Assembly (NCBI RefSeq): GCF_032999765.1
Contig: NZ_CP136051.1
Location: 6,404,501 to 6,468,500, forward strand
Source of the DNA: Imperialibacter roseus
Lineage (GTDB): Bacteria; Bacteroidota; Bacteroidia; Cytophagales; Cyclobacteriaceae
DNA: 64,000 bases
Direction: 5' to 3'
In this document: positions 25,614-27,528 of the stretch, one piece after another
Position numbering within the stretch: the first letter of the stretch is position 1
Layout of the letters: each line of letters begins with the position of its first letter
Position numbers and translations under genes: made by a program
The notes under the pieces: generated by a model
Seen by the model: the letters and a program-made list of their open reading frames with translations, nothing else
What the model was told of the DNA's origin: nothing
Database searches by the model: none

Positions 25614-26288
25614 CTACAGTAGATTTGGTCTTCGCTCTTTCGTTCGCTGCACCGACTGCTCGTGCCTCCAGTCGTCGATAAGTGCGTCGTTTCCTGACAG
25701 CAATACATCCGGCACTTTCATGCCTTTGTAGTCGGCTGGTCTGCTGTAAACCGGCGGTGCAATCAGGTCATCCTGAAAGGAGTCGGTAAGTGCGGAGGTT
25801 TCGTCGTTTAGCACGCCCGGAATAAGCCTGATCACTGCGTCGCACACAATGGCGGCAGCAAGTTCTCCGCCCGACAGCACAAAATCGCCAACGCTGATTT
25901 CTCTTGTTATCAGGTGCTGACGCACTCTTTCGTCAACTCCTTTATAATGCCCGCAGAGCAAAATCATGTTCCCTTTCATAGCCAGGCCGTTGGCCAACCT
26001 TTGGGTAAGCAGCTCCCCATCAGGACTCATATATATAATGTCGTCGTAGGTTCGTTCGGATTTGAGGGCCTGGATGCAGCGGTCGATGGGCTCTATTTGC
26101 AGCACCATGCCAGCTCCGCCGCCGTAAGCGTAGTCGTCAACAGTTTTATGTTTGTTGACAGCGTAATCTCTCAGGTTGTGCACTTTAACTTCCGTGAGGC
26201 CCTTGTCGATGGCTCTTTTGAGAATGCTGTGTTCAAAAGGGCTTTTGAGCAGCTCAGGTACACATGAAATAATGTCGAATCTTACCAT
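25614..26288 (-). CDS. trmD: tRNA (guanine-N1)-methyltransferase TrmD
   Basis: Methylates G37 of tRNAs with S-adenosylmethionine, guarding the reading frame. The 224-residue product has the SPOUT knot signatures [13 protein letters not shown] (about residue 109) and [16 protein letters not shown], plus [15 protein letters not shown]. It starts 6 bases downstream of the rimM stop, as in the usual operon. Confidence 0.98.
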
Positions 26289-26294
26289 GGCTGC

Positions 26295-26818
26295 CTAAGA
26301 GTCTAAGTATATATCAAGCAAACCGGGTGGAAGCTGCAGGGTCACCGATTTCGCTTTTAAATCCACCGCTTTAATAATATTGTCGCTGATTGGCACAAGC
26401 ACTTCCTTTCCCTGGCAATCGATGGCTAGCACGTCGTGCCCCGGAAAGTTAAGGATGTTTGATATGGTGCCCAATACTTTGCCCTCTTCAACTGCCTCAA
26501 GTCCTACCAGATTGTGGAAGAAATATTGCCCTTCCGAAAGTTCCGGCAGGCTGCTTTCTGGTAGGTAGACCTCCGTGCCGGCAAGCTTCTCAGCCGCATC
26601 CAACGACCTCACTTCGTCGAACCGAGCAATGGCCTTTTTGCCATTGAGTGACCAATGCTCTAAAAAAAAGGAACCAATTCGTTGTTGATTAACAACAGAA
26701 CTGATTCCAGATTTTTGTAATGCCCAGGGTCGTCCGAATCGATCCAAACCTGAACATCGCCCTTTGTGCCATGGGTTTTGGTGATTACCCCAAGCTGAAA
26801 GCAATCATCCAAATGCAT
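26295..26818 (-). pseudogene. rimM: 16S rRNA processing protein RimM, reading frame broken at a T8 run
   Basis: Assists 30S head maturation. The true start is the ATG at 26818, 5 bases after the rpsP stop: the first 52 codons read MHLDDCFQLGVITKTHGTKG and on to VPFF, the expected RimM N-terminus, then hit TAG at 26660-26662. The rest of RimM (from FFLEHWSLNG to the PRC-barrel and DIYLDS) continues in the frame that ends at 26295. One extra T in the T8 run (26662-26669) restores a 174-residue protein. The 169-codon open frame starting at 26804 contains non-RimM sequence before the shift and is not the real gene. Confidence 0.88.
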
Positions 26819-26823
26819 AAGGA

Positions 26824-27528
26824 CTACTCTTCTTTTTTCTCGTCTGCTTCAGGAGCGTCGGCCTTAGGGGCCTCTTCTGCCGGGGCTTCTGCTTTAGGAG
26901 CTTCCTCTGCAGCAGGTACTTCAGCCACTGGAGCCTCTTCAACTGGTGCTTCAGCAGCAGGTGTTTCCTCTACCACTGGTGCTGTTTCAGTTACTTCAGC
27001 AGCAGGTGCTTCTTCCGCAACCGCAGCCTCTTCTACTGCAGCTTCTTCGCTGGCTTCGGGCGCAGCAGCAACCTCAGCCTTCTTACGAATAGCTTCAGCT
27101 CTTGCCTGGCTCACCTTGGTTTCAGCAGCAAGACGTGATTTTCTTTCGTCTTCTTTCTTCTTAGCCAGAGACTCAACTTTGCCAGTCACTTTGGCATCTT
27201 GTTGATTCTTCCACTCTTCGAACTTGGCATCAGCCTGTTCTTGTGTAATGGCTCCTTTGTTCACACCAATCTGAAGGTGTTTTTTCAAAAGAATTCCCCT
27301 GTAAGAAAGCATGGCTCTAACGGTATCAGAAGGTTGCGCACCTTTCATAACCCAGTCAAATGCCTTTTCATCATTCAAAACAATTGTTGCCGGATTGGTA
27401 TTTGGATTGTACGTTCCCAATTTCTCGATGAACTTACCATCCCGTGGCGAAGTACTGTTAGCCACAACCACATCAAACATTGCAAGTTTTTTACGTCCTC
27501 GACGTGATAACCTGATTTTAACTGCCAT
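26824..27528 (-). CDS. rpsP: 30S ribosomal protein S16 with long Ala/Glu-rich C-terminal tail
   Basis: Residues 1-85 are a normal S16 (MAVKIRLSRRGRKKLAMFDV, GKFIEKLGTYNP, DWVMKGAQPSDTVRAML). A helical charged region follows (about 86-150, rich in Lys, Ala and Glu). The last 80 residues are a low-complexity string of EAPAAE-type units ending EADEKKEE. The total is 234 residues, against 80-90 in Escherichia. Extended S16 tails are usual in Bacteroidota, but this one is long. It heads the rpsP-rimM-trmD operon. Confidence 0.97.
   Translation of the reverse strand: MAVKIRLSRRGRKKLAMFDVVVANSTSPRDGKFIEKLGTYNPNTNPATIVLNDEKAFDWVMKGAQPSDTVRAMLSYRGILLKKHLQIGVNKGAITQEQADAKFEEWKNQQDAKVTGKVESLAKKKEDERKSRLAAETKVSQARAEAIRKKAEVAAAPEASEEAAVEEAAVAEEAPAAEVTETAPVVEETPAAEAPVEEAPVAEVPAAEEAPKAEAPAEEAPKADAPEADEKKEE

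What the first reader, a model, noticed from the sequence alone, without database searches (positions are those of the whole stretch)
26295..26818. rimM reading frame broken at a T8 run
The frame starting at 26818, 5 bases after rpsP, encodes a clear RimM N-terminus for 52 codons and then stops within T8 (26662-26669); the rest of RimM follows in the next frame. Adding one T restores a 174-residue protein that tiles neatly between rpsP and trmD. RimM loss slows 30S maturation, so a real null allele would be costly. A base-calling error, a strain mutation or transcriptional slippage on T8 are the alternatives.
Basis: partly seen in the sequence, partly recalled or inferred. Interest (0 to 1): 0.6.

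Follow-up and report, generated by a model that had tools for sequence, protein, structure and literature searches.

The report
Miscounted T run in rimM
The apparently broken ribosome-assembly gene rimM is most likely an ordinary intact gene in which a nanopore-only genome assembly counted eight T's where there are nine, so it is a sequencing artefact and not new biology.

Summary
The same-genus genome G001 has T9 and an intact 174-residue RimM. In the family sample, 38 of 40 other genomes have a RimM match, none with an internal stop. The chromosome length, 6,747,663 bp, equals that published for Imperialibacter roseus P4T; its announcement describes nanopore R10.4.1 reads and a Flye assembly, with no polishing or short reads mentioned. 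Among 676 compared G001 ORFs I judge six proteins interrupted in this genome, all by one-base deletions. One is rnpA, its only RNase P protein, cut by the same T9-to-T8 difference in the same codon phase. rimM differences from the sister are mostly synonymous (18 against 3). Best explanation: consensus base-calling error. Against it: T9 runs are not generally depleted (111 against 99 in G001). A real recent mutation, possibly rescued by slippage or -1 frameshifting on T8, is not excluded. The raw reads would decide.

The parts
26660..26818 (-). rimM, first 52 codons and premature TAG
   Evidence: ORF; PF01782 profile positions 1-39, E 6e-07
26662..26669 (-). T8 run in the PFF codons; T9 in the same-genus genome G001
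   Evidence: run lengths at this site in 65 loci
26295..26659 (-). remainder of rimM in the next frame, to its stop
   Evidence: PF01782 positions 50-83 and PF24986 positions 2-69 of 69
26824..27528 (-). rpsP (bS16), intact neighbour upstream
   Evidence: ORF; name from sequence reading and gene order, no profile search run
25614..26288 (-). trmD, intact neighbour downstream
   Evidence: ORF; relatives by tblastn; name recalled

Best explanation
rimM is intact in the organism and the assembly lost one T of a T9 run. The run comes from ordinary codons of a conserved Pro-Phe-Phe-(Leu/Ile/Val)-Glu stretch. Shown: T8 here, T9 in the sister, intact frames in relatives, the same lesion in the only rnpA. 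Taken from the genome announcement: nanopore-only reads and Flye, no polishing described. Inferred: that the missing base is a consensus error and not a mutation.
For: G001, same genus, 95% identical over this stretch, has T9 and a 174-aa RimM. 38 of 40 other family genomes have a RimM match and none of the 38 has an internal stop. Length 6,747,663 equals the published I. roseus P4T chromosome, made from R10.4.1 reads and Flye with no polishing or short reads mentioned (whole text). In a benchmark of R10 assemblies, nearly all indels in typing loci lacked exactly one base (passages). rnpA, single copy here, has the same T9-to-T8 difference in the same phase; 40 of 40 other family genomes have it without an internal stop. 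RNase P protein is essential in E. coli and B. subtilis (recalled), so two such lesions by real mutation would be costly. rimM differs from G001 by 18 synonymous and 3 non-synonymous changes, one codon dropped.
Against: Exactly-T9 runs are not depleted in G000: 111 against 99 in G001. Of 9 coding A/T runs of 9 or more in G001, G000 keeps 4 at full length, 3 are interrupted by substitutions at equal length, and 2 (rimM, rnpA) are one base short. So the error, if it is one, is sporadic. Four of the six breaks I accept are not in long runs. R10 homopolymer errors are few per genome in the passages seen. 202x coverage is reported. The reads were not seen.
Confidence: 0.9

Rival explanations
1. A real, very recent T9-to-T8 mutation in the sequenced stock, leaving RimM truncated at 52 residues.
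For: Long T runs are mutation-prone (recalled). E. coli without rimM is viable though slow to recover from growth arrest (abstract). The announcement notes that the stock now gives orange instead of pink colonies. Runs of 8 or more differ between the two species in both directions outside genes.
Against: It would need the same event in rnpA, which is single copy and essential in model bacteria (recalled). rimM shows no relaxed selection.
Confidence: 0.07
2. T8 is real and full RimM is still made, by RNA polymerase slippage adding one U or by ribosomes slipping -1 on U_UUU_UUU just before UAG. Both give the same Phe-Phe-Leu-Glu join.
For: The phase fits: codons CCT TTT TTT TAG in rimM and TCT TTT TTT TAT in rnpA, both ending in a U_UUU_UUU heptamer (the heptamer rule is recalled). 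Slippage on A11 rescues tssM of Citrobacter rodentium at about 20%, and A9 works in Yersinia (passages).
Against: The sister has T9 in frame and needs no rescue. The phase follows simply from codons xxT TTT TTT TTA. The T run is not conserved in length: among 65 loci, T9 only in G001 and T8 only in G000 and one other genome, where it is in frame.
Confidence: 0.03

Closest known systems
Homopolymer deletion in a long-read-only bacterial assembly
   Same: One base missing from a T9 run in a coding frame, splitting a conserved gene; nanopore-only assembly (general description, passages)
   Different: T9 runs as a whole are not shortened in this genome, so the loss is sporadic
Transcriptional slippage rescue, as in Citrobacter rodentium tssM
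   Same: A homopolymer at a frame break in an otherwise complete coding sequence
   Different: T8 instead of A11 or A9; intact T9 in the sister; no sign of conservation of a slippery run

Membership tests
RimM (PF01782 + PF24986) | N-terminal RimM domain and C-terminal PRC barrel | tested here: met
   Both found, divided over two frames; single frame in G001
Assembly error in a homopolymer | Relatives carry the full run and an intact frame | tested here: met
   T9 in the only same-genus genome held; 38 of 38 family matches without internal stop, one of them (G052) an open frame of only 97 aa that I did not follow up
Assembly error in a homopolymer | Error-prone method without short-read correction | tested here: met
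   R10.4.1, Dorado, Flye, Circlator; no polishing or short reads mentioned; the link to this genome rests on equal length
Assembly error in a homopolymer | General shortening of runs of 9 | tested here: not met
   111 T9 runs in G000, 99 in G001
Assembly error in a homopolymer | Reads support the longer run | not testable with these tools
   SRR26278781 is named but reads are not available here
Programmed transcriptional slippage or -1 frameshifting | Slippery run conserved, out of frame, in relatives | tested here: not met
Programmed transcriptional slippage or -1 frameshifting | Both protein forms made | not testable with these tools
   no expression or protein data held

The most novel reading that the evidence does not exclude
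T8 is real in both rimM and rnpA, and Imperialibacter roseus makes both proteins only through slippage or -1 frameshifting at a UUUUUUUU run in the same codon phase, so that two factors of ribosome and tRNA maturation share one recoding-dependent dose control that its sister lacks.
Probability: 0.02. Interest if true: 0.65.

Novelty: not a real feature. Interest (0 to 1): 0.07.

Why it matters
It matters mainly as a warning. The deposited chromosome shows two conserved translation genes as broken, and automatic annotation or gene-loss studies could take rimM and rnpA for lost. If T8 were real in both genes, it would be a striking case of recoding in near-essential genes.

Tried and rejected
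Second RimM copy: none, only the two pieces. Second rnpA copy: none. General shortening of T9 runs: not found. Excess of frame breaks as proof of poor sequence: weak. One search lists 14 of 676 G001 ORFs as out of frame in G000. I accept six: rimM, rnpA, an M16 peptidase, an O-antigen-ligase-like protein, a patatin and a sorbosone dehydrogenase/cytochrome c. In five of these the break lies inside the Pfam-matched stretch; in the O-antigen-ligase-like protein it lies before it. I dropped eight: five whose break lies before the recognised domain, probably upstream of the true start, two ORFs without any Pfam match, and one that is a break in G001 (Na/Pi cotransporter). The reverse list has 10 of 676 G000 ORFs: three are events already in the first list (two of dropped ORFs and the patatin); of the other seven, two look like real breaks in G001 (Na/Pi cotransporter, HepT-like), three have the break before the domain, one (TIM-barrel protein) is ambiguous and one has no Pfam match. 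Six against two or three is not a significant difference.

Two first alignments used wrong coordinates or the wrong strand and are void; one search replaces them. One search was a script that failed. A literature search for rimM with frameshift and homopolymer gave 31 papers, 15 listed, none on this gene by title. The paper on the other Imperialibacter genomes is not held, so how G001 was sequenced is unknown, and its species name is my inference.

Full report
What is there. On the minus strand, rpsP ends at 26824, an ATG follows at 26818, and 52 codons later a TAG closes the frame at 26660, its T being the last base of a T8 run at 26669-26662. The first piece matches the start of Pfam RimM, and the next frame matches the end of that domain and the whole PRC barrel of RimM. 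The own-genome search with PF01782 finds only these two pieces.

What relatives show. The only other genome of the genus that is held, G001, is 95% identical over 601 bases. It differs in length by one base: it has T9 where the window has T8. Its RimM has 174 residues in one frame. In a sample of 41 family genomes (own included), 39 have a RimM match; of the 38 others none has an internal stop, and 37 have an open frame of at least 169 residues, G052 one of 97. G005 and G009 have no match. Of 119 loci searched with the sister protein, 65 gave a hit, some of them the same genome twice. Only the three loci that are this same window gene came in two pieces. The run comes from codons of a Pro-Phe-Phe-(Leu/Ile/Val)-Glu stretch; T9 occurs only in G001, T8 only in this genome and in one other, where it is in frame.

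Selection. Compared with G001, codon by codon and leaving out the gapped codon, rimM has 18 synonymous and 3 non-synonymous changes, against about 119 synonymous and 403 non-synonymous sites. The gene was under normal selection until very recently.

Which genome. The chromosome has 6,747,663 bases in one contig. That is the published length of Imperialibacter roseus P4T (whole text read). The announcement describes MinION R10.4.1 reads, Dorado base calling, reads of 8 kb or more assembled with Flye, Circlator, 202x coverage; no polishing step and no short reads are mentioned. Passages of a benchmark on R10 assemblies say that nearly all indels in the typing loci lacked one base, and that in Salmonella all but one of the indels lay in runs of six or more. 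Those libraries used other barcoding kits. The same passages show such errors to be few per genome, as does.

Is this genome prone to it? I compared three segments of G000 and G001: 676 G001 ORFs of 80 aa or more, 785,091 bases. Fourteen are listed with an out-of-frame stretch; I accept six as interrupted proteins, all by one-base deletions in G000. Two are T9-to-T8: rimM and rnpA. rnpA is the only RNase P protein in the genome, and 40 of 40 other family genomes have it without an internal stop. RNase P protein is essential in the model bacteria (recalled), so an identical lesion in rnpA makes error, or rescue, much more likely than two real null mutations. The reverse comparison gives two or three acceptable breaks in G001, so the excess in G000 alone proves nothing.

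Results against the error reading. G000 has 111 runs of exactly T9 and G001 has 99: there is no general shortening. Of nine coding A/T runs of 9 or more in G001, four are kept at full length in G000, three are interrupted by substitutions at the same length, and two are one base short. All six such coding runs of G000 align without net length change. Outside genes, run lengths differ in both directions. So any error is sporadic.

Slippage. With T8, adding one U during transcription, or a -1 slip of the ribosome on U_UUU_UUU before UAG, would each restore Phe-Phe-Leu-Glu; rnpA has the same phase. This is possible in principle: slippage on A11 and A9 is documented for tssM (passages). But the sister has T9 in frame, and the phase follows from the ordinary codons xxT TTT TTT TTA.

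Verdict. An ordinary rimM with a probable consensus error, 0.90; a real recent mutation 0.07; rescue by recoding 0.03. The raw reads decide.

Noticed in passing
G000:C1:6669588 (outside the window; locus L268): rnpA, the only RNase P protein gene, is interrupted by the same T9-to-T8 difference.
   Followed up: yes
G000:C1:6630422 (outside the window): An M16 peptidase gene is interrupted by a one-base deletion that is not in a long run.
   Followed up: partly
G000:C1 5924449, 5715016, 2571979 (outside the window): Three further one-base deletions interrupt an O-antigen-ligase-like protein, a patatin and a sorbosone dehydrogenase/cytochrome c; none is in a run of nine. Errors near modified bases are one possibility, not tested.
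   Followed up: partly
window 26824-27528, minus strand: rpsP encodes 234 residues with a long Ala/Glu-rich C-terminal tail.
   Followed up: no
G005: A family genome rated 97% complete shows no RimM match; not checked whether it is a gap in the assembly.
   Followed up: no
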